Shown: one piece after another, positions 16,522 to 28,720 of the stretch
Numbering within the stretch: the first letter of the stretch is position 1
How the letters are laid out: the number at the start of each line of letters is the position of its first letter
Origin: an uncultured Caulobacter sp.
GTDB taxonomy: Bacteria; Pseudomonadota; Alphaproteobacteria; Caulobacterales; Caulobacteraceae
NCBI RefSeq assembly: GCF_947036865.1
Contig: NZ_CAMQSF010000012.1
Location: 1 to 64,000, forward strand
Length of the DNA: 64,000 bases
Reading direction: 5' to 3'
The notes under the pieces: generated by a model
Seen by the model: only the letters and a program-made list of their open reading frames with translations
Database searches by the model: none
What the model was told of the DNA's origin: nothing
Program-made: the position numbers and the translations under genes

Positions 16522-18057
16522 ATGGCCGTACAGAGGCTCGTTCTGAACGAAAAGAGCGTCTTTCAGCTGCCTCTGGCGACCAAGGGCCGATACATCGTCC
16601 GGGACGCCGACCTTCGCGGCTTTTGCCTTTTCGTCGGCCAGCGCCGGAAGTCGTTCACGGTGCAGGCGGAACATTGGGACTGCGGCCGGAGAACCTCAAA
16701 GACCATTGTCCTGGGCCACGCCGGCGATCTCTCCGCGCGCGACGCGAGGATTCAGGCCAAGATTCTGCTGGCGAAAATCGCCAACGGCGAACTCGACGTC
16801 GAAACCTCCACTGAGCCGCCACCGCCGGCCGGCGTCACATTGCGACAGGCCTGGCAGCGCTACCTGACCGCCCACCTGCAACGCAAGGAGCGCAGCCCCG
16901 CGACGATCAAGGGATATGTCGATCACATCGAGCGCGCCTTGGTCGATTGGATAGACCTGCCGCTTCAGGTCCTCGGCGAGAACCCCGTCATGGTCGCCGA
17001 GCGTCACGACATCATGTCGCGTGAAAATGGCCCGTCCGCAGCGAACGGCGCCATGCGCACTCTGCGGGCGATCTACAATCATGCCCGCAAGAGCCACCGC
17101 GAATTGCCCCCGGAGAACCCGACCCTCGCCGTGGACTGGAATCGCGAGAAGCGCCGCGACACGGCAATGGGCGTCGAGGATTTCCCGGCGTGGTTCGCGC
17201 AGGCTCGGTTGCTGCGCCATCCCGTTCGCCGGGAATTCCACCTGATGACCCTGCTCTCCGGCAGTCGCCCGGGGGCTTTGCTCCAGGCCCGCATTGAGCA
17301 CATCAATTTCCGGGACCGGATCCTGCACATTCCGCGACCGAAGGGAGGCGCGGACCGCGCATTCGATATCCCGTTGTCGCGACCGATGGTCCGAAGCCTG
17401 ATCAGGGCTATTCGAGCAAGCCGCATCCTCTTCCCGGAGCAGGCCAAAGAGTGGGTCTTCGCAGCGGCTAGCGCGGAAGGACACATGGCCGAGCACAAGG
17501 AGTCGAGAAAGGTCTTGTCCAAATGGGGCAATGACCTGCGCCAGACCTACCGAACCATGGGCCAGGTCGCCGGGCTCTCTGAGGTCGATATGCACCTGCT
17601 CATGAACCACAGCCTGCCGGGCGTGAACGCCGGCTACATCACTCGCGCCAAGCTGTTGAGCGGCCATCTGCGCGCGGCGCAGGAAAAGCTTTCCGGAACA
17701 ATGATCGACGCCGCCGAAATCCAGGGCCGCGCCTGGCCGTTTCTTCCGGCGCGAAAGCTCGGCGACCCGGTTCTTGATCCGCCTCTGCCGGACCCCCGAT
17801 CCAACCGTGCCCGGGAGGAGCGCTTCTGGGCGATCGATGCGCCACGTCTCTTGAGGGCCGCAGCGGCAAGAACCGCCTCCGGCTCGGATCGGCCGCGGTT
17901 GATCACGGCTTCAGAACATCAGCCGCGGAGCCAGCCAGCCCTCGGCTCGGCCATGCCAGCTCCCGCGCCGCCCGGGCCCCCGGCCCCACGACCCGAGGCG
18001 CCGCGACCATCATCGCCCGCCATGCACGACCCTGTCCGATCCCTTCTCAATATGTAG
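16522..18057 (+). CDS. tyrosine-type site-specific integrase
   Basis: SPATIKGYVDHIE core-binding domain; LLSGSRPGALLQARIEHI (Arg I), GNDLRQTYRTMG (Arg II), LLMNHSLPGVNAGYITR (His/Tyr). Confidence 0.92.
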   Translation: MAVQRLVLNEKSVFQLPLATKGRYIVRDADLRGFCLFVGQRRKSFTVQAEHWDCGRRTSKTIVLGHAGDLSARDARIQAKILLAKIANGELDVETSTEPPPPAGVTLRQAWQRYLTAHLQRKERSPATIKGYVDHIERALVDWIDLPLQVLGENPVMVAERHDIMSRENGPSAANGAMRTLRAIYNHARKSHRELPPENPTLAVDWNREKRRDTAMGVEDFPAWFAQARLLRHPVRREFHLMTLLSGSRPGALLQARIEHINFRDRILHIPRPKGGADRAFDIPLSRPMVRSLIRAIRASRILFPEQAKEWVFAAASAEGHMAEHKESRKVLSKWGNDLRQTYRTMGQVAGLSEVDMHLLMNHSLPGVNAGYITRAKLLSGHLRAAQEKLSGTMIDAAEIQGRAWPFLPARKLGDPVLDPPLPDPRSNRAREERFWAIDAPRLLRAAAARTASGSDRPRLITASEHQPRSQPALGSAMPAPAPPGPPAPRPEAPRPSSPAMHDPVRSLLNM

Positions 18058-18129: not shown

Positions 18130-18618
18130 ATGTCCGGTCTCAATCGGGAGCATAAGATGACACTGCCTGCATTCGCCCACGAGCTTGGCGATAGGCTTCC
18201 GTCTGCCAACGAGCGCGCCGCCGCCAACCAACTTCGCAAGATATTGGCCGCCCAGGCCAGCGGAGATGCCGATGGCATGCTGCGCGTTCTTCAGGAAGAC
18301 AAGTCAACCTCGGAGGTCGTGCTGACGCCGGCGCTTTCGCGCCTTTTGATGGAACTGCTTCGCCACGTCGGTCGTGGCGATGCTGTGACGCTCGTCCCTG
18401 TCAGCCAGATGCTGACGACGCAGCAGGCGGCCGACATTCTCAACGTGTCGCGTCCCTATCTTGTCGGCCTGCTCGACAAGGGCGAGATCGCTCATGAGCT
18501 GGTCGGTCGCCATCGCCGGATCAAGGCCGAGCACCTGTTCGACTACAAGCGCAAGCGTGACGAAAAACGCGCGGGCGCCCTGGCCGGTCTGGCGGCGCTG
18601 GACGCGGAGCTCCTCTAG
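18130..18618 (+). CDS. excisionase-type HTH antitoxin
   Basis: VSQMLTTQQAADILNVSRPYLVGLLDKGEIAHELVGRHRRIKAEHLFDYKRKR; immediately upstream of PIN gene. Confidence 0.85.
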   Translation: MSGLNREHKMTLPAFAHELGDRLPSANERAAANQLRKILAAQASGDADGMLRVLQEDKSTSEVVLTPALSRLLMELLRHVGRGDAVTLVPVSQMLTTQQAADILNVSRPYLVGLLDKGEIAHELVGRHRRIKAEHLFDYKRKRDEKRAGALAGLAALDAELL

Positions 18619-18621
18619 TCC

Positions 18622-19212
18622 GTGTTCGCCAACCGCTTCACCGCCTTGATCGACGCCTGCTGCCTTGCGGGGACGCTCAAGCGCAACCTGCTGCTGACCC
18701 TGGCGGAGGCGGAATTCTTCCGGCTCCGCTGGTCCAGGACGATCCTCGACGAAACCGAGGCCGCGATCCGGCGCATCCTGGAGGACAGGGGCGCCGACGA
18801 CGCGGCCGAACGCGCGAGCCGGGCTCGCAAGTTCATGGAAGAGGCCTTCGAGGAAGCAGACGTGGGCGACTACGAAAGCATGCTGTGCGCCTGCGACGCC
18901 CTGCCCGACCCAAACGACGCCCATGTGCTGGCCGCGGCCCTGAAGACGCAAGCGGCGATCATCGTGACGGACAATCTGAAAGATTTCCCGCCCGCGATCC
19001 TCGGTCCGCTCAATCTTGAGGCTCGCTCGGCTGACGACTTCATCGCCGACACGGTGGCGCTTGATCCTGGACGCGCGGTGGCTGCGGTGCGCGCGATGCG
19101 CGAACGCTTCAAGCGGCCGGAAAAGACGGCCGAAGCCCTGCTCCTGGACATGGAGGCCGAAGGGCTGACCGAGACGGTGGATGTGCTCCGTCCCCACGTC
19201 GCGTCGCTCTGA
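18622..19212 (+). CDS. PIN domain toxin
   Basis: TALIDACCLAG...LPDPNDAHVLAAALKTQAAIIVTDNLKDFP, conserved acidic residues of PIN RNases. Confidence 0.87.
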   Translation: MFANRFTALIDACCLAGTLKRNLLLTLAEAEFFRLRWSRTILDETEAAIRRILEDRGADDAAERASRARKFMEEAFEEADVGDYESMLCACDALPDPNDAHVLAAALKTQAAIIVTDNLKDFPPAILGPLNLEARSADDFIADTVALDPGRAVAAVRAMRERFKRPEKTAEALLLDMEAEGLTETVDVLRPHVASL

Positions 19213-19227
19213 TAGATCGCGTTCGCC

Positions 19228-20136
19228 CTACACCGGCTCGACTGGGGCGCCGGCGGCAGGCCTGTCGAGCGACGTGGCGGCGATGATCGCCTGAAACTCG
19301 TCCAGGATTTCCGGATGGCGACCGCGCAGATAGCCGAGGATCTCGGGATTGGCGACGAGCCGCGACAGGTAGCCAGATGCGATGACCAGGTGCAGAACAT
19401 CGTCGCCATACGACGCCTCCAGGGCTTTGAAGTCCTGGGTCAGGGACTCCATCTCCCGCTCCATTCGCGCCATCTGCTCCGACGTCATACCGCCGACCTT
19501 CTTGGGCTTGTTGGCATGGATGAGATCGTGCTGGCGAGTGGCCGCCAGTAGCGCCTGGGCATAGGCGGAAGTGAAATTGCCCACCGAGACCATGAGTTCG
19601 GCGACTTCCACCTGGCGCATCGGCTTCATTTTCCGAAGGACGTCGAACGCCACCGGGTTGACCGCGCGGTCCTTCAGCAGTTCGACGACCTCGGGGGTGA
19701 CGCCGTCGAGGAGATTTCGTCGGCGCTTGATCCCCTTCACGTCGACCTTCAAGGCGCGGGCAAGCTTTTCCTCGGGGACCCCGCGCTCGAGCGCGCGCAC
19801 GATCATGTAGTGCTCCTGGATCGTCGCCAGCCGATTGACCCGCTTGTTGTAGGTGAAGGCCTCATCGTCGTCGGCGATCAGGCAGCGCGTTTCCCGGACG
19901 CCGAGGTCCTTGAGAATGGCGAGGCGCACGTGACCGTCGAGCAGCATCAGCGGTCCTTCGCCGGGCGACCGAACCACGACCAGGGGCTCGATCACGCCGA
20001 CCTCGGCCACCGACTGGGCGATACGGCCAAACTTCACCGAACCTCGCACCTTGTCGGAGAGCTTGCGCATCGGGAGGATATCGTCGACCCGCACCACCAG
20101 AAGTTCGCTCTCGAACGCGGCTTTGACGTCGGCCAT
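19228..20136 (-). CDS. ParB/RepB-like protein (RepB C-terminal type)
   Basis: VVRSPGEGPLMLLDGHVRLAILKDLGVRETRCLIADDDEAFTYNKRVNRLATIQEHYMI; ParB/sulfiredoxin-like fold. Confidence 0.85.
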   Translation of the reverse strand: MADVKAAFESELLVVRVDDILPMRKLSDKVRGSVKFGRIAQSVAEVGVIEPLVVVRSPGEGPLMLLDGHVRLAILKDLGVRETRCLIADDDEAFTYNKRVNRLATIQEHYMIVRALERGVPEEKLARALKVDVKGIKRRRNLLDGVTPEVVELLKDRAVNPVAFDVLRKMKPMRQVEVAELMVSVGNFTSAYAQALLAATRQHDLIHANKPKKVGGMTSEQMARMEREMESLTQDFKALEASYGDDVLHLVIASGYLSRLVANPEILGYLRGRHPEILDEFQAIIAATSLDRPAAGAPVEPV

Positions 20137-20137
20137 G

Positions 20138-21028
20138 TCAGGCCTCCGCCAGCCCGAGCCGCTCGGCGAGAGGCTTGGGAAGCGTGTGCATGGCCTCTGC
20201 GCGCAGCAGGGTCACGAAGTGCGGATCGTCGAGAAGGCGGCGCAGACCATTGACGACGAAGAGCAGGCGTCCCTGGGTGAGGGTGGCCTTCTTGATCATC
20301 AGTTTCTGCCGGTCGGTCTCCTTGCGGTAGGCCCGCACCAGGGAGTCGGCGGTGACGCGCGGTCGCGCGCTCGGGCCGCGCGAGCCACTGTTGCCGGCCT
20401 TTCCGCTGACGCGGCGCTGCTCGATGATCCGGCGGATGGCGATGAGCTGGTTCCCGGGCAGCGCCTTCTGCTCGTAAGCCTCGGCCAGGGCGCCCTGAAG
20501 ATCGGCGTCGCCCGCCTTGGCGATTTCCATCGCGATACTGTGGGGGATGGCGCCGCGCTCCACGGCGCGGATGAGCCGTTCCTCGCCGTGCTCCAGCAGG
20601 AAGCAGATCGCCCAGATGTACTCGGGACTGAAGTCGGTCTTTCGGGCGATGTCCGCCAGCGAATAGCCGCGCTCCTTGAGCGCTCCGATCTCCGAAACGA
20701 GCTCCAGCGAAGTGTGCTGACGGCGAGCCAGGTTCTCGACCAGACTCATTACGAAACAGTCCTCGACGGTGGCGTCCATGAGGATCGCCGGGATCTCCAT
20801 CTGGCCGAGCGCCTGGAAGGCTTCAAGACGCCCCTGGCCGCAGATGAGGTCGTATCCGCCATCGTCGCGAGGCCGCACGGTGATCGGCTTCTTCAAGCCG
20901 AGATTGGCGATCGACGTCACCAGCTCCTGGAAGATGCGTTTGTTGCGCGAGCGAGGATTGAGGATGGTGATCTTCGCGATCGGTACGCGCCGGATCACCG
21001 GCGCCTCTGGGATGGCGTCCGTCGTCAC
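20138..21028 (-). CDS. ParB/RepB/Spo0J-like nuclease-fold protein
   Basis: LVTSIANLGLKKPITVRPRDDGGYDLICGQGRLEAFQALGQMEIPAILMDATVEDCFVMSLVENLAR. Confidence 0.9.
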   Translation of the reverse strand: MTTDAIPEAPVIRRVPIAKITILNPRSRNKRIFQELVTSIANLGLKKPITVRPRDDGGYDLICGQGRLEAFQALGQMEIPAILMDATVEDCFVMSLVENLARRQHTSLELVSEIGALKERGYSLADIARKTDFSPEYIWAICFLLEHGEERLIRAVERGAIPHSIAMEIAKAGDADLQGALAEAYEQKALPGNQLIAIRRIIEQRRVSGKAGNSGSRGPSARPRVTADSLVRAYRKETDRQKLMIKKATLTQGRLLFVVNGLRRLLDDPHFVTLLRAEAMHTLPKPLAERLGLAEA

Positions 21029-22593
21029 GCGGCAAGCCTCAGGCTGGCGCGGCGCGTGAGGTCCAGGAACGGGTCGAGGTCATCAAATCGATAGGCGTCG
21101 AGGAAGACGCCGTTGTCTTCGCCAAGTCGCAGGCGAACCGCCTCGCCCATGTCGATCCACGGCAGCAGATAGTAGTCGCGGATCTCCTGGTTGCCGGCCT
21201 CCATTCTCGCGACGATGGTGATGTCCGGCCGAAGACCGGTGTCGAGGCGGATCTTCCAGCGTTGACCACGCTCGCTTTCGGCGCAGCGGGCGATCGAGAG
21301 CGATGCGGTGAACTCGTCATTGATGGTCAGGAGATCGGTGGCCGGATCGATGGCGACGCTGGCGCCTAAAGCTCGGATGCCTACGACCGTCCGCTCGACG
21401 ACCTTCGGATGAAGGGCGCGCAGGACGCGGTTGGTTTCCAGGTATCGGTAGTCGCGGTCCGTCGCATAGCCGACCAGCTGATAGGCCCTGACCAGGCTGC
21501 CGAACCGGCTGCGGTAGGTGGCGCTGGACGGCATGTCCTCCACCTCGTCGATGATGAGGCCCGACAGGCACCCGCGCTGACCGAGCAAGGCGGTCAGCCG
21601 TTCCAGCAGTTCGGCGTCCGTGAAACGCCGGCTCCGCTCTTCGATGATGCGACGCGCGGCGATGAAGAAGTCCGGATCGACGATCCCCTCGAACGCCTCC
21701 TCGGCCCGAACCCATTGATCGGGATCGTTGACCACCCGCTTCTTCTTCAGCTTGAAGGACACGCGGTTGTAGACGTTGTTGCCGACGTACTTTTCGTTGG
21801 TCAGGACCTGGTGAACGGTGCCGCGCGTCCACGGCCGTTCAAGGTCTGTGAGTACGCCTTCGCCGTTCAGCATCACGGCGATCTCGCGCTCGGAGCGTCG
21901 GTGCAACACGAACATCCGGTAGATGCGGTTGACGACCTCGATCTCCTCTGCGGGTCCGGGGGTCAGAACCACCCGGTCGGTCTGCAGGCTCTTGTGCTCG
22001 CCGCGTCCCAGGAGCGCCTTGGGCTGACGGTGCTCATCGACGAGAAGACGCCGCAAGCCAAATCCGGCGGGGCCGCCCTGGCGGAAGCCGAGGTTGATGA
22101 GGCGGCATTGGCCGGTGAACACCTTGGCCGAGAGCTCGCGGCTGTATTCCCCCGCCATGGCCCGCTTCATGCTCTTGATGATGGTGGCGCTGAGGCTGCC
22201 GTCATTCTCGAACTGCTCGGCGCAGTAGTGGACGACGATGCCAGCTTCGCGGCACTGGAACTCGTAGTAGGCGCTCTCATCGGCGTCCTGGAAACGCCCC
22301 CACCGGCTGACGTCATAGACGAGGATGGCCTCGAAATCGGCCAGGCCCGCCCGCACGTCGGCGATCAGTTTCTTGAGGGCGTCACGCCCATCGAGCCGCA
22401 GGCCGCTTTTGCCCTCATCGGCATAGGTTCGGACGATCTCGAAGCCGCGCCGGGCGGCGTACTGGTCGATGATCTCCGCCTGGTTTTCGGTGGAGTACTT
22501 CTGGTGTTCGGTGCTCATACGCACATAGCGGGCGGCGCGAACGGGCGCCCCGCGAATTTCCGCGTTCGTCTCGATAGTCATCAGGGAAAACAC
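21025..22593 (-). CDS. large serine recombinase
   Basis: AARYVRMSTEHQKYSTENQAEIIDQYAARRGFEIVRTYADEGKSGLRLDGRDALKKLIADVRAGLADFEAILVYDVSRWGR resolvase domain; recombinase domain GEGVLTDLERPWTRGTVHQVLTNEKYVGNNVYNR. Confidence 0.95.
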   Translation of the reverse strand: MFSLMTIETNAEIRGAPVRAARYVRMSTEHQKYSTENQAEIIDQYAARRGFEIVRTYADEGKSGLRLDGRDALKKLIADVRAGLADFEAILVYDVSRWGRFQDADESAYYEFQCREAGIVVHYCAEQFENDGSLSATIIKSMKRAMAGEYSRELSAKVFTGQCRLINLGFRQGGPAGFGLRRLLVDEHRQPKALLGRGEHKSLQTDRVVLTPGPAEEIEVVNRIYRMFVLHRRSEREIAVMLNGEGVLTDLERPWTRGTVHQVLTNEKYVGNNVYNRVSFKLKKKRVVNDPDQWVRAEEAFEGIVDPDFFIAARRIIEERSRRFTDAELLERLTALLGQRGCLSGLIIDEVEDMPSSATYRSRFGSLVRAYQLVGYATDRDYRYLETNRVLRALHPKVVERTVVGIRALGASVAIDPATDLLTINDEFTASLSIARCAESERGQRWKIRLDTGLRPDITIVARMEAGNQEIRDYYLLPWIDMGEAVRLRLGEDNGVFLDAYRFDDLDPFLDLTRRASLRLAA

Positions 22594-22658
22594 CCGCCTC
22601 GCACGTCAGAGCCCAGGGAGCGCCACGGCTCCTCTCCTGAAACCCTAGGTCGGATCGT

Positions 22659-23048
22659 GTGGGTATGTCGCGTTCGCAGAAGGACCGAAAACTTCGGTCA
22701 AATCCGGAAAAGCTCTTCCCGGAACGCCCCGCAGAGGGCTTCGATTTCACCGAAGCGATCGCACAGGCTCTGCGGCGGGAATTCGGTTCCAGCCCGGCCG
22801 CTGTGAAGACCGTCGTGCGCCTGACCCGCACCAATCCGCGCGCCGTCCGCAACTGGTTCGCCGCCAACAACGGGCCCAATGGTGAGAACCTCGTCGTGCT
22901 CGCCCGCCACTCCGAGGAGGTCCTGGAGACGGTGCTGCAACTGGCCGGACGGCAGGATCTGGTCACGGCTCGCAAGCTCGCCGGCGCGCGCGAGAAATTG
23001 CGAGAGATGCTGGAAATGATTGACGACCTGCAATCGGGCCAGGGTTAG
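22659..23048 (+). CDS. small HTH-like protein
   Basis: AIAQALRREFGSSPAAVKTVVRLTRTNPRAVRNWFAANNGPNGENLVVLARHSEEVLETVL. Confidence 0.7.
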   Translation: MGMSRSQKDRKLRSNPEKLFPERPAEGFDFTEAIAQALRREFGSSPAAVKTVVRLTRTNPRAVRNWFAANNGPNGENLVVLARHSEEVLETVLQLAGRQDLVTARKLAGAREKLREMLEMIDDLQSGQG

Positions 23049-23133
23049 GCCATCGAGACACGAGCCATTCACCCTTGCCTTGTCGACACCCGTCTTTCAT
23101 CTGGACGGTTGTCCCTCTCACCGAGTTCTCCCC

Positions 23134-23997
23134 ATGCTACGCTTCGCCTTTCGGGCCAGCCTGATCGCCCTCGTCGCCATGCCAGCCTCGGCTATGGCTT
23201 GGGGCCGCACCGGCCACGCCGTGGTTGCCGAAATCGCGCGCGGTTACCTTACGCCGAAGGCCGCGGCGGCCGTCGACGCCCTGCTCGCCAGCGATCCGGA
23301 CGTCCTGACGGAAAGTGACCTGGGATCGCGAGCGGCCTGGGCGGACGCCTATCGGCGAGACCACCGGGAAACGTCGGAGTGGCACTTTGCTGATGTGGAG
23401 CTCGACCATCCTGACCTCGCCGAGGCCTGCTTCGGCTTCCCGGCCAGCGGGACGCCCGCGAGCGCGGGTCCGGCGAAGGATTGCGTGGTGGGTCGGCTGG
23501 AGGCGTTCGAGCGCGAGCTGGCCGACCCACGGACCGATGCCGCCGAGCGTCTTCTGGCCTTCAAGTTCGTGCTGCACTTCGTCGGCGACCTGCATCAGCC
23601 ACTCCATGCCGCGGACAATCAGGACAAGGGTGGAAACTGCGTCCCTCTGGCGCTCGGCGGTCCGCGCACCGTCAACCTCCACAGCTATTGGGACGGGGTC
23701 GTCGTCGATGCGCTCGGTCCCGATGCAAAGACGATCGCCGCTTCGCTGAGCGCCAGGATCACGCCCGCGCAACGCAAGGCCTGGGAAAAGGGGGACGCGA
23801 AGAGCTGGGCGATGGAGAGTTTCGCCGTCGCTAAATCGACGGCTTATACAGTTGGCTCCGCGCCCGGCTGCTCAAACGACAAGACGCCGATCGCCCTGCC
23901 GGAAGGCTATGCGGAACGGGCAAGCGCCGCCGCCGCCCTGCAACTGCAGAAAGCGGGCGTGCGTCTCGCTCTGGAGCTCAATCGCGCCTTCGACTAG
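23134..23997 (+). CDS. S1/P1 family nuclease
   Basis: Signal peptide ...SAMAWGRTGHAVVAEIARGYL; WHFADVEL; LKFVLHFVGDLHQPLHAADNQDKGGN zinc-ligand motifs; HSYWD. Confidence 0.93.
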   Translation: MLRFAFRASLIALVAMPASAMAWGRTGHAVVAEIARGYLTPKAAAAVDALLASDPDVLTESDLGSRAAWADAYRRDHRETSEWHFADVELDHPDLAEACFGFPASGTPASAGPAKDCVVGRLEAFERELADPRTDAAERLLAFKFVLHFVGDLHQPLHAADNQDKGGNCVPLALGGPRTVNLHSYWDGVVVDALGPDAKTIAASLSARITPAQRKAWEKGDAKSWAMESFAVAKSTAYTVGSAPGCSNDKTPIALPEGYAERASAAAALQLQKAGVRLALELNRAFD

Positions 23998-24664: not shown

Positions 24665-24915
24665 GGCCGACCACATCGTAGGACTTCGAGGGAGTCTGGG
24701 CGGGGCGGTGGAAAGGTCTGCGAGGACCCCCAGGGTTTTAGCGCGAGCGCCTGGACATGCCGTCGGGCGCCCCGCCCAGACAGCCACTACCTTAGGGCGG
24801 CCGCCACCGACAATCAAAGCGCGGCCCTACGCCGCCGCCTGTCTTTGCACGCTGCTGCGCGAACGCGCCTGACAGAGACTGGCGTTCGCCTCGTCCGAGC
24901 CCCTTGATCCTGAAC

Positions 24916-26877
24916 ATGCAGGGTTCCAAGGTCCTCTGGCTGACGATCATCCTCGTCTTGGGCGTGGCGCTCGCGGCTGTGTGGTCCGCGACGCAATGGA
25001 CCGCGGCGTCGCTGGCTCACCAACCGGCCCTTGGGGCTCCGTGGTTCTTTCTCGCGGGCCGCCCCGTCTATCCGCCGCCCGCCTTCTTCTGGTGGTGGTT
25101 CGCCTATGACGCCTATGCGCCGGGCACCTTCCTGCGCGGCGGCGCGATCGCGGCCAGCGGCGGCGTTCTGGCCGCCGCCCTGGCGATCATGATGGCGATC
25201 TGGCGCAGCCGTGAGCGTGACGGGGCGTCGACCTTCGGAACCGCACGCTGGGCCAGCGATAGTGAGGTTCGCGGCGCGGGCCTTCTCGGCGACGACGGGG
25301 TGTTTCTCGGTCGATACAGCGATCACTATCTGCGCCACGCCGGACCAGAACATGTGCTCGGGTTCGCACCGACCCGTATGGGCAAAGGCGTCGGCTGGGT
25401 GGTGCCGAGCCTTCTGACCTGGCCCGCCTCGACGATCGTTCACGATATCAAAGGCGAGAACTGGACCCTCACGGCGGGATTTCGCGCGAAGCTCGGACCC
25501 GTCCTGCTGTTTGATCCAACCAATGCGACATCCTCGGCCTACAATCCCTTGCTCGAGGTTCGGGCCGGCGAGACCGAAGTTCGCGATGTGCAGAACATCG
25601 CCGACATTCTCGTTGATCCGGAAGGTAGCCTCGACAAGCGCAGCCACTGGGAGAAGACCTCCCACGCCCTTCTCGTCGGCGCGATCCTGCACGTCCTCTA
25701 CGCCGAGCCCGACAAGACCCTGGCCGGTGTCGCCGCCTTCCTGTCGGATCCGAGCCGCACGATAGAGCAGACGCTCGCGGCCATGATGACCACGCGGCAT
25801 CTTGGTGAAGCCGGCGTCCATCCCGTGGTGGCCAGCGCCGCCCGGGAACTGATGAACAAGAGCGAGAACGAGCGCTCGGGCGTTCTGTCGACGGCTATGA
25901 CCTTTCTGGGTCTCTACAGAGATCCGGTCGTCGCCACGGTGACCGCCCGCTGCGATTGGCGGATCGCCGACCTGGTCGCGGCGCCGTGCAGTCTCTATCT
26001 CGTCATCCCGCCTTCCGATGTGAGCCGAACGCGTCCGCTGATCCGGCTGATCCTCAATCAGATTATCCGCCGTCTGACGGAGAGCCTGGAGGACGTGAAC
26101 GGGCGCCAGGATCTCCTGCTCATGCTCGATGAACTCCCGGTGCTGGGACGGCTGGATTTCCTCGAGGGCTCGTTGCCGTTCATGGCGGGTTACCGCATCA
26201 GGGCCTTTCTGATCACCCAGTCGCTCAATCAGATCGAGCGGGCCTACGGCCCCAACAACGCCATCCTGGACAACTGCCACGTCCGCATCTGCTTTGCGAC
26301 CAACGATGAGCGGACCGCCAAGCGGATTTCCGAGGCCCTCGGCACGGCCACCGAAGAGCGGGCGATGCGAAATTATGCGGGGCACCGTCTCTCCCCCTGG
26401 CTTGGCCATCTTATGGTCTCGAAAGCCGAGTCGCCGCGGCCTCTGATGACGCCCGGCGAAATCATGCAGCTCCCGGCGGACGATGAGATCGTTCTGATCG
26501 CCGGCGCGCCGCCGATCCGCGCGCAGAAAGCACGCTACTTTCAAGACCGCCGTCTGGCGGCCCGAATTCTACCGCCCCCCGTCCCGAGCCGACTGTCGAC
26601 CGCGCCGCACGGCTGGAGGATTCAGCCACGGGTCAGGGAGGCAGCGCCCGCGATGACCAGCCCCGGCGCGATGGCGGACGGCGAAGGGCCCAGCCCGCGC
26701 GAGTACTCGCTTGCGCTGCCCGAGCTCGCATTGCCCCCAGGCTCCCGAGACGAATTTGCGTTCGACGACTCTCTCGCGGAGGACATGGCCGCGGCCAAGG
26801 CGCGCCAGTTCGAACGCAGTCAGACGAGCATCGCGCGACAAGCCTCGATGGACCCAGACGACGGGATGGAGCTCTAG
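24916..26877 (+). CDS. traG: type IV coupling protein, conjugal transfer TraG/VirD4
   Basis: TM segments then GFAPTRMGKGVGWVVPSLLTWPASTIVHDIKGENW ... LLLMLDELPVLGRLDFLEGSLPFMAGYRIRAFLITQS. Confidence 0.95.
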   Translation: MQGSKVLWLTIILVLGVALAAVWSATQWTAASLAHQPALGAPWFFLAGRPVYPPPAFFWWWFAYDAYAPGTFLRGGAIAASGGVLAAALAIMMAIWRSRERDGASTFGTARWASDSEVRGAGLLGDDGVFLGRYSDHYLRHAGPEHVLGFAPTRMGKGVGWVVPSLLTWPASTIVHDIKGENWTLTAGFRAKLGPVLLFDPTNATSSAYNPLLEVRAGETEVRDVQNIADILVDPEGSLDKRSHWEKTSHALLVGAILHVLYAEPDKTLAGVAAFLSDPSRTIEQTLAAMMTTRHLGEAGVHPVVASAARELMNKSENERSGVLSTAMTFLGLYRDPVVATVTARCDWRIADLVAAPCSLYLVIPPSDVSRTRPLIRLILNQIIRRLTESLEDVNGRQDLLLMLDELPVLGRLDFLEGSLPFMAGYRIRAFLITQSLNQIERAYGPNNAILDNCHVRICFATNDERTAKRISEALGTATEERAMRNYAGHRLSPWLGHLMVSKAESPRPLMTPGEIMQLPADDEIVLIAGAPPIRAQKARYFQDRRLAARILPPPVPSRLSTAPHGWRIQPRVREAAPAMTSPGAMADGEGPSPREYSLALPELALPPGSRDEFAFDDSLAEDMAAAKARQFERSQTSIARQASMDPDDGMEL

Positions 26878-26879
26878 TC

Positions 26880-27302
26880 ATGCGGGTCAAACACACCTTT
26901 CGGCTTCCACCCGGCCTCGGCAAACGGCTGGCCGAATACGCGCTAAGGCGCCGTATCTCACAGGCGCTGGTGGTCGAGGCGGCCTTGGAGAGCTTCCTGT
27001 CGCCAGATGGCGCCGAACAACTGGAGGCGGCGCTGAGCCGCAGGCTAGACCGCCTGTCGCGCCAGGCTGACCGCATAGAGCAGGTCGTCGGCATCATCCT
27101 CGAGGCGCTTGGCCTCTTCGTTCGCTTCTGGCTGGCCAACACCCTGGCCTTGCCCGAAGCATCCCTGGCCGCTCAGCAAGCCAAGGGTCGCGAACGCTAC
27201 CAGAATTTCCTGACCAGCCTCGGGCGTCGCATCGCCAAGGGCGCAAACCTGTCGCGCGACATCGAGGCCAGCGCACGCGAAGCGGACGCCCCCGAGATCT
27301 AA
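26880..27302 (+). CDS. CopG/ribbon-helix-helix protein of trb locus
   Basis: MRVKHTFRLPPGLGKRLAEYALRRRISQALVVEAALESFLS between traG and trbB. Confidence 0.8.
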   Translation: MRVKHTFRLPPGLGKRLAEYALRRRISQALVVEAALESFLSPDGAEQLEAALSRRLDRLSRQADRIEQVVGIILEALGLFVRFWLANTLALPEASLAAQQAKGRERYQNFLTSLGRRIAKGANLSRDIEASAREADAPEI

Positions 27303-27553
27303 GCGTCAGGATCGTCAAAGGCGCCGAAAGACTTCAGTCGAGCCTGCTGCTCGAGCGCCGAGCGGTTGATCGCGCCCTCGAGGAGGGCGCACGCCTGGTC
27401 CAGGGCGCGCAGGTCGTCGCGATGGTTGACCACGAGCGCGGCGGCCAACATCTCGACGAGGGCGTCGGCGATCGCCCCAATCTTCTCCGGATCGCGATTG
27501 GCCAAGGCCAACTGAGAGAGCACCAAGGCCCGCAGGTTGTCGACGAAGTCCAT
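27299..27553 (-). CDS. small hypothetical protein
   Basis: MDFVDNLRALVLSQLALANRDPEKIGAIADALVEMLAAALVVNHRDDLRALDQACALLEGAINRSALEQQARLKSFGAFDDPDA. Confidence 0.55.
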   Translation of the reverse strand: MDFVDNLRALVLSQLALANRDPEKIGAIADALVEMLAAALVVNHRDDLRALDQACALLEGAINRSALEQQARLKSFGAFDDPDA

Positions 27554-27754
27554 GCTTCCTCCGGCGGGTAGCATCGGCCTTGCAGCGTCGTCCGCGCAAT
27601 GCCTCTCACTCCGATCGGAGCGCAATTTTCGCCAGCGCCTGTCTTTGCACGCCAGGCCTCGCCGAGCGCTAAACCCTTGTTGCGCCGCCGGCGCTTTGGT
27701 CCTGTCTAGAGAGCCTCCCGCCCGGTGCGCCGGGCCTTGTCGAGGCCTTCGATC

Positions 27755-28720
27755 GTGTCGGCGATCCCGCTTCCAGACGACAGTCAAACGCGCGCCAGCC
27801 GTATGCTGCGGACAGCGCTCGGCGCGGACGTCCGGGCGTGGTTGGCTCAGGACGATGTCGTTGAGGTGATGCTCAATCCGGACGGTCGTCTCTGGATCGA
27901 TCGTCTCGGGACGGGCCTATCCGACACAGGCGTAAGGCTGGAGGCGGCGGAAGGCGAGCGGATCATTCGTCTGGTCGCCCACCATGTCGACGGCGAAGCC
28001 CATGCACGAAGCCCCCGCATATCCGCCGAATTGCCTGCGACCGGCGAGCGGTTCGAGGGTCTCTTGCCGCCTATCGTCTCTGCGCCGACCTTCGCCATTC
28101 GCAAGCCTGCCGTCCGGGCGGTGACGCTAAGCGACTATGTCGACCAGGGCGTGATGGACCGCGCGCAAGCCGACACCCTGGCCGCCGCCGTCGCCTGGCC
28201 ACGCAACATCCTCGTCGCCGGCGCCACGGCCAGCGGCAAGACCACCCTCGCGAACGCCCTCCTTGCCGAGTTGGCCGGAACCCGGCAGCGGGTCATCATC
28301 CTCGAGGACACCGTCGAACTTCGCTGCCCCGCGCCCAACACCGTGGCGCTACGCAGCAAGGACGGGGTCGCCTCGCTGACCGACCTGCTGCGGTCAACGC
28401 TGCGCCTGCGTCCCGACCGGATCGTGGTGGGCGAAGTACGCGGCCCCGAGGCGCTCGATCTCATCAAGGCCTGGGGCACGGGCCATCCGGGCGGGATCGC
28501 CACGGTTCACGCCGGCACGGCCCTCGGCGCCCTGCGTCGCCTCGAACAGCTCATCGCCGAGGCGGCGGTGACCGTCCCGCGCGACCTGATCGCAGAGACG
28601 GTCGATGCGGTCGCCGTGCTGAGCGGCCGGGGTGCTGCGCGGCGCCTCACCGAACTCGTCGCGGTCCAGGGCCTCGACGCCGGCGGCTACAGCTTCATCC
28701 CCCTCGGAGACGCATCATGA
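27755..28720 (+). CDS. trbB: conjugal transfer ATPase TrbB
   Basis: [77 protein letters not shown]. Confidence 0.96.

What the first reader, a model, noticed from the sequence alone, without database searches (positions are those of the whole stretch)
19228..22593. Large serine recombinase coupled to two ParB-like proteins
Recombinase (stop) overlaps ParB-like 1 (start) by 4 bp, and ParB-like 2 follows after 1 bp. No ParA is present. The two ParB-like proteins differ (one with a RepB-type C-terminus). The tight coupling suggests they act with the recombinase, for example in synapsis, target choice or directionality, rather than in partition. I recall similar trios in alphaproteobacteria but know of no assigned function.
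Basis: partly seen in the sequence, partly recalled or inferred. Interest (0 to 1): 0.72.

Follow-up and report, generated by a model that had tools for sequence, protein, structure and literature searches.

The report
Serine recombinase with two ParB partners
This is a widespread, tightly linked set of three genes, a DNA-cutting-and-joining enzyme and two proteins that resemble plasmid-segregation proteins, that travels as a unit on plasmids, phages and integrated elements, which suggests an unstudied kind of DNA-integration machine with two dedicated helper proteins.

Summary
Recombinase 22593-21025 (-), ParB1 21028-20138 (4-bp overlap) and ParB2 20136-19228 (1-bp gap) are intact; no ParA is adjacent. 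The trio is a real conserved unit: 153 of 156 related loci with enough sequence carry recombinase-ParB1-ParB2 in that order, across proteobacterial contigs, plasmids and prophage-like contigs. Overlaps are conserved and the distance matrices agree (r 0.80-0.88). A divergent small HTH gene (window 22659-23048) often precedes it. Near-identical copies sit between unrelated flanks, so the block itself moves (3.9 kb on two Agrobacterium plasmids, 8.7 kb in three unrelated contigs). Several copies lie at tRNA 3' ends, above all tRNA-Met in Rhodobacterales phages. The recombinase has serine-integrase catalytic and recombinase domains but no zinc ribbon. In about 50 alpha loci a covarying structured RNA, unknown to Rfam, follows ParB2. 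Best reading: a three-protein site-specific recombination module in which the ParB-like proteins serve the recombinase. That they act in synapsis or directionality is inference; some copies, the window's included, sit beside another integrase, so the module's integrase role is not proven.

The parts
21025..22593 (-). Large serine recombinase, 522 aa: resolvase catalytic domain 21-157 (catalytic Ser27 in YVRMST), recombinase domain 216-320, C-terminus without zinc ribbon
20138..21028 (-). ParB1: ParB N-terminal domain (25-100) + RepB-type C-terminus (101-271); keeps CGxGR and ENxAR motifs
19228..20136 (-). ParB2: divergent ParB/Srx-like N-domain (DGHxR) + RepB-type C-terminus (100-281)
22659..23048 (+). 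Divergent small HTH-like gene (129 aa), present upstream of the trio in 79 of 169 loci by profile; phrog_23106 (unknown function)
19264..23042 (.). Module as a DNA block: homology to four other Caulobacter-group loci starts and ends here (near ParB2 stop, at HTH stop)
18130..18618 (+). Neighbour: excisionase-type HTH protein, likely antitoxin of the next gene
18622..19212 (+). Neighbour: PIN-domain protein (RSP_2648-like, below cut-off), likely toxin; ends 16 bp from ParB2 stop
16522..18057 (+). Neighbour: tyrosine integrase-like gene (PF13356; PF00589 below cut-off), probable integrase of the surrounding conjugative element
24904..28720 (+). Conjugation genes (T4SS coupling ATPase 24904-26877; TrbB 27725-28720): the module lies inside an integrative conjugative element

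Best explanation
The trio is a self-contained site-specific recombination module of mobile elements. The serine recombinase cuts and rejoins DNA (shown by domain and catalytic residue only). It has lost the zinc ribbon and coiled coil by which ordinary large serine integrases synapse their sites and choose direction, and carries a homing-endonuclease-type repeat instead. Two obligate, co-translated ParB/RepB-type proteins probably bind the element's ends, load on DNA as NTP-controlled clamps, and supply synapsis and direction (inferred). The module moves itself and small toxin or defence cargo (Fic, AbiE, here a PIN pair) between plasmids, conjugative elements and phages, at least sometimes at tRNA 3' ends.
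For: 153/156 loci keep recombinase-ParB1-ParB2; overlaps conserved; distances correlate r 0.795-0.877, permutation maximum 0.11. Block mobility: 3904 bp shared at 96.9% by pAtC58 and pAt1D1460 with unrelated flanks and a tRNA T-arm-like repeat at both ends; 8.7-kb element at 93-97% in three unrelated contigs with matching ends. tRNA sites: T-arm motif 26 times within 2.5 kb of the trio versus 4-12 for control patterns; intact tRNA-Met or its 3' half in 10 loci; 31 of 49 trio viral contigs lack a tyrosine integrase. Catalytic fold matches serine integrases in PDB; no zinc ribbon in 32 rows; PF18780 in a relative. ParB2 model matches Noc, ParB, KorB.
Against: The window copy and the gamma copies sit next to a tyrosine integrase. 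Six of the twenty trio phage contigs scanned also carry a conventional serine recombinase, in five of them at the opposite contig end. The Tabrizicola contig with the tRNA-Met 3' half also has a tyrosine integrase. No complete attL/attR/empty-site set was recovered for any copy; chromosomal copies show no clear flanking repeats. No experiment links ParB1 or ParB2 to recombination.
Confidence: 0.6

Rival explanations
1. ParB1 and ParB2 are a partition or stability system for the excised or plasmid form, merely co-transcribed with the recombinase.
For: Both have RepB-type C-termini; many copies are on plasmids; the element in the window has a ParA-type ATPase about 45 kb away.
Against: No ParA adjacent and none among conserved neighbour families as read from the cluster list; the pair follows the recombinase in phages and chromosomes too; ParB1 scores 32.9 against the RepB equivalog cut-off 201.5.
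Confidence: 0.12
2. The ParB-like proteins are KorB/VirB/Noc-type regulators that time transcription of the recombinase and cargo, without a direct part in recombination.
For: ParB2 model is close to KorB and Noc; KorB is a CTP clamp repressor (PMC11790492) and VirB a CTP-switch regulator (PMC10770331), both from abstracts listed.
Against: A separate HTH gene already stands at the divergent promoter in many copies; two regulators tied to one recombinase in 153/156 loci fits partners better than regulators.
Confidence: 0.15
3. The trio is a passenger resolvase or inverter (multimer resolution, local rearrangement) on elements that are integrated by other integrases.
For: Tyrosine integrase next door in the window and a tyrosine-integrase-like neighbour family in 19 loci; a second serine recombinase at the far end of five trio phage contigs.
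Against: Phage contigs of 14-36 kb with the trio beside tRNA-Met and no other recombinase (L171, L177, L178, L189, L190), though they may be fragments; stand-alone 3.9-kb and 8.7-kb mobile blocks with the trio as only recombinase found.
Confidence: 0.13

Closest known systems
Large serine integrases (phiC31, Bxb1, Listeria LI/A118 family; PF00239 + PF07508 + zinc ribbon/coiled coil)
   Same: Catalytic domain and recombinase domain; best PDB fold matches are serine integrases; phrog_95 integrase
   Different: No zinc ribbon or coiled coil (the motif that controls synapsis and direction, PMC3783163); homing-endonuclease repeat instead; two obligate ParB-type partners; tRNA-type sites in part of the copies
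SCC cassette recombinases CcrB/CcrC
   Same: Nearest NCBIfam recombinase models; self-mobile cassettes with direct-repeat ends
   Different: Score 53.9 and 35.7 against a cut-off of 900; no ParB partners in Ccr systems (own knowledge)
ParB / RepB / Noc / KorB CTP clamps
   Same: ParB N-domain and RepB-type C-domain; ParB2 model matches Noc, ParB, KorB; ParB1 keeps an EN motif
   Different: No ParA partner; strictly behind a recombinase; ParB2 has DGHxR/DDE..TYN in place of GERR/EN. A 2025 survey of the fold (PMC12704722) contains neither 'recombinase' nor 'integrase' in its main text
Elements with a recombinase and a structured RNA (IS110 bridge RNA, IS605 omega RNA)
   Same: A structured non-coding RNA at the 3' edge of the recombination genes in about 50 copies
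   Different: Unrelated recombinase; RNA absent from the window copy and from the Agrobacterium copies; no guide function tested (the comparison rests on own knowledge)

Membership tests
Large serine integrase | Resolvase-type catalytic domain with catalytic serine | tested here: met
   PF00239 E 9e-22; Ser27 invariant in 24 and 32 rows
Large serine integrase | Recombinase domain PF07508 | tested here: met
   E 1.5e-22
Large serine integrase | Zinc ribbon with inserted coiled coil | tested here: not met
   No zinc-ribbon family hit; 0 of 32 rows with the cysteine pattern
Large serine integrase | Integration with definable attL/attR | tested here: inconclusive
   Direct repeats at both ends on two Agrobacterium plasmids; tRNA-Met attL and a 3' half in Tabrizicola, but another integrase on that contig
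ParABS / RepABC partition | ParB/RepB domains | tested here: met
   PF02195, PF07506
ParABS / RepABC partition | ParA/RepA in the operon | tested here: not met
   nearest ParA-type ATPase about 45 kb away
ParABS / RepABC partition | parS sites | not tested
   -
RepB of repABC (TIGR03454) | Score above the equivalog cut-off | tested here: not met
   32.9 versus 201.5 bits
SCC Ccr recombinases | Score above the equivalog cut-off | tested here: not met
   53.9 versus 900 bits
ParB/Srx free serine kinase SerK | Score above the equivalog cut-off | tested here: not met
   ParB2 24.9 versus 380 bits
Known defence systems (PADLOC) | Trio proteins match a defence model | tested here: not met
   Only a weak methyltransferase hit for the ParB2 N-domain
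RNA-guided recombinase | Structured RNA encoded beside the recombinase | tested here: inconclusive
   Present 3' of ParB2 in 52 loci, absent from the window
RNA-guided recombinase | RNA loops match donor and target DNA | not tested
   -

The most novel reading that the evidence does not exclude
A serine recombinase whose site choice or synapsis depends on two ParB-type NTP clamps and, in one large branch, on a dedicated structured RNA made from the 3' end of the module: a ribonucleoprotein-assisted serine integration system.
Probability: 0.07. Interest if true: 0.9.

Novelty: new variant of a known kind. Interest (0 to 1): 0.62.

Why it matters
Serine integrases are thought to need no partner beyond a directionality factor, and the coiled coil is held to decide synapsis and direction. 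A branch that lacks the zinc ribbon and coiled coil, is common across Proteobacteria and their phages, and is nearly always followed by two ParB-type proteins offers a direct test of how that control can be replaced. It would also give a recombination role to the ParB fold and name a vehicle for small toxin-antitoxin and defence cargo.

Tried and rejected
Flanking direct repeats around chromosomal copies: none convincing in 13 regions. Structured RNA in the window: none, so it cannot be universal. The ParB2 remnant 3.6 kb downstream in L116 looked like an att duplication but is explained by a transposase insertion. A simple 'tRNA integrase' claim was weakened: some tRNA-near copies have a tyrosine integrase next door, and several trio phages have a second serine recombinase. 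Tree of recombinases with and without ParB partners: one origin compatible but support 55/34, with long and misplaced rows, so not used. Partition reading: rejected as first choice for lack of ParA. SerK-like kinase reading of ParB2: far below cut-off. Sinorhizobium ParB2 copies without recombinase: decayed remnants. Literature searches found no paper that assigns a function to the trio; subscription papers and preprints were not searchable.

Full report
Observation. The recombinase has the resolvase and recombinase domains and an invariant YVRMST motif with the catalytic serine. ParB1 has a ParB N-domain and a RepB C-domain. ParB2 has the RepB C-domain and an N-domain too divergent for the Pfam ParB cut-off, but its model matches Noc, ParB and KorB. 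So both, not one, have the RepB-type C-terminus, and they are the only two such proteins in the genome. No ParA is adjacent; the nearest ParA-type ATPase is about 45 kb away on the same contig. The surroundings are an integrative conjugative element (coupling ATPase, TrbB) with a tyrosine integrase-like gene 1.2 kb from ParB2 and a PIN-domain pair that ends 16 bp from the ParB2 stop.

Conservation. Starting from the recombinase I collected related loci from whole genomes, plasmids, GTDB contigs and IMG/VR. Of 156 loci with at least 2.3 kb downstream, 153 have ParB1 and ParB2 in order behind the recombinase. The set covers alpha-, beta- and gammaproteobacteria, a few MAG contigs labelled Planctomycetes, Acidobacteria or Actinomycetota (binning not checked), plasmids and phage contigs. 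Identity to the window recombinase runs from 44 to 89%. More distant recombinases (about 38-49%) had no ParB genes in the flanks held. In 130 non-redundant loci the recombinase and ParB1 overlap in 118 (4 bp in 76), and ParB1 and ParB2 overlap by 4 bp in 75. Distances between loci correlate at 0.795 (recombinase-ParB1), 0.822 (recombinase-ParB2) and 0.877 (ParB1-ParB2), against at most 0.113 after permutation; shared descent of neighbouring genes explains this as well as contact does. A small divergent HTH gene is found upstream in 79 of 169 loci.

The block moves. pAtC58 and pAt1D1460 share 3904 bp at 96.9%, exactly HTH gene plus trio, between unrelated flanks. At both ends of the block stands a repeat of the form CGCCTTGANNGGAATCGAACCG, the complement of a tRNA T-arm and acceptor end; the same repeat ends the left flank in three related plasmids that hold other DNA there. 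Such repeats occur 8 times in pAtC58, all on one strand, and also bound a VapC-type cassette of 889 bp in pAtCFBP5877a. In Thauera, a Lysobacterales MAG and a viral contig an 8.7-kb element at 93-97% identity has the same left and right end, with the trio as the only recombinase genes I could read in it, plus AbiE-type and other small genes. In the window's own group, homology to four loci covers 19264-23042 only, so here too the HTH gene plus trio is the unit.

tRNA sites. Across 130 loci the tRNA T-arm pattern occurs 17 times within 2.5 kb left of the recombinase and 9 times within 2.5 kb right of ParB2, then almost stops; four control patterns gave 4 to 12 in the same space. Ten loci, mostly Rhodobacterales phages, carry tRNA-Met about 1.9 kb left of the recombinase, with a Fic gene between in those read. 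Four have the whole tRNA (L133, L142, L177, L190), four have foreign DNA joined at the anticodon loop to the 3' half (L171, L176, L178, L189), as expected for attL and for attP or attR. Tabrizicola TH137 has the whole tRNA at the trio end and a 3' half followed by a host-like terminator at the end of a second contig that continues the same phage type. Contigs of L171, L177, L178, L189 and L190 have neither a tyrosine integrase nor a second serine recombinase.

Limits of that argument. The second Tabrizicola contig carries a tyrosine integrase. Five phage contigs have a conventional serine recombinase at the end opposite to the trio, and L174's contig has one at 48 kb. The gamma copies have a tyrosine integrase between an ssrA-like end and the trio (position read from coordinates). 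The window copy lies next to a tyrosine integrase-like gene. No copy gave a full set of attL, attR and empty site.

What the proteins suggest. The recombinase lacks the zinc ribbon and coiled coil: no family hit and no cysteine pattern in 32 rows. A relative's C-terminus contains the homing-endonuclease-associated repeat above the Pfam cut-off (PF18780), probably its DNA-binding substitute. In known serine integrases the coiled coil governs which sites synapse (PMC3783163). ParB1 keeps CGxGR and ENxAR, close to the nucleotide-binding motifs of CTP-dependent ParB (own knowledge of those motifs); ParB2 has DGHxR and DDE..TYN. The simplest inference is that the two ParB-type proteins replace the lost synapsis and direction control, perhaps as NTP-gated clamps. 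This step is not shown.

A structured RNA. Directly after the ParB2 stop, 52 alpha loci have a conserved element of about 130 nt. In 44 sequences 98.4% of cells pair, 12 of 26 pairs show changes on both sides, and no shuffle of 500 reaches the observed values. No Rfam family matches. In 299 genomes of the order the model hits nine places; eight are directly 3' of ParB2 or a ParB2 remnant (five of them by coordinates beside trios). Six betaproteobacterial-type copies have a comparable folded region (weak). The window and the Agrobacterium copies lack it. It may be a regulator or terminator, a structured end of the element, or a working part of the recombination complex.

Verdict. The trio is real, conserved and mobile. 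Its most likely role is a three-protein site-specific recombination module. I found no published function for it in the open literature searched.

Noticed in passing
L174:5349-5513, L044:5193-5357 (-), L123:4727-4891 and about 50 other loci, just 3' of ParB2: Covarying structured RNA element unknown to Rfam; an orphan partial copy in G285 (L320) without any trio gene nearby.
   Followed up: partly
L030 6045 and 9927; L038 5002 and 8884; L039 12046; L040 12051 and 12940; eight sites in pAtC58: tRNA T-arm-like 20-25 bp repeats, mostly in one orientation per plasmid, bound small cassettes (AbiE, Fic, VapC-type, trio) on Agrobacterium pAt plasmids, like an integron-style cassette system.
   Followed up: partly
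G304, G331, G333, G358, G359 (viral contigs of L168, L215, L218, L170, L175): A conventional serine recombinase lies near one contig end and the trio near the other.
   Followed up: partly
L082:11448-13529: A second, related serine recombinase without ParB partners stands directly downstream of a trio in Caulobacter sp. D5.
   Followed up: no
L045:5691-5785 (-): A match to the Rfam CC0734 sRNA family at the outer end of the HTH gene; L044 has similar sequence there.
   Followed up: no
NZ_CP110863.1 (13.5 kb, labelled Lactiplantibacillus plantarum): Trio at 67.6% identity in a record named as a Gram-positive plasmid; probably a contaminating alphaproteobacterial contig.
   Followed up: no
L292, L293 (Sinorhizobium meliloti pSymA): Decayed ParB2 remnants without the recombinase, so the module is also lost by decay.
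   Followed up: partly
L116:15243-17500: After a trio split by a transposase come a WYL-type regulator and what reads like a DISARM-type gene; not tested with a profile.
   Followed up: no
window 23020-23997: S1/P1-type nuclease gene between the module and the conjugation genes.
   Followed up: no
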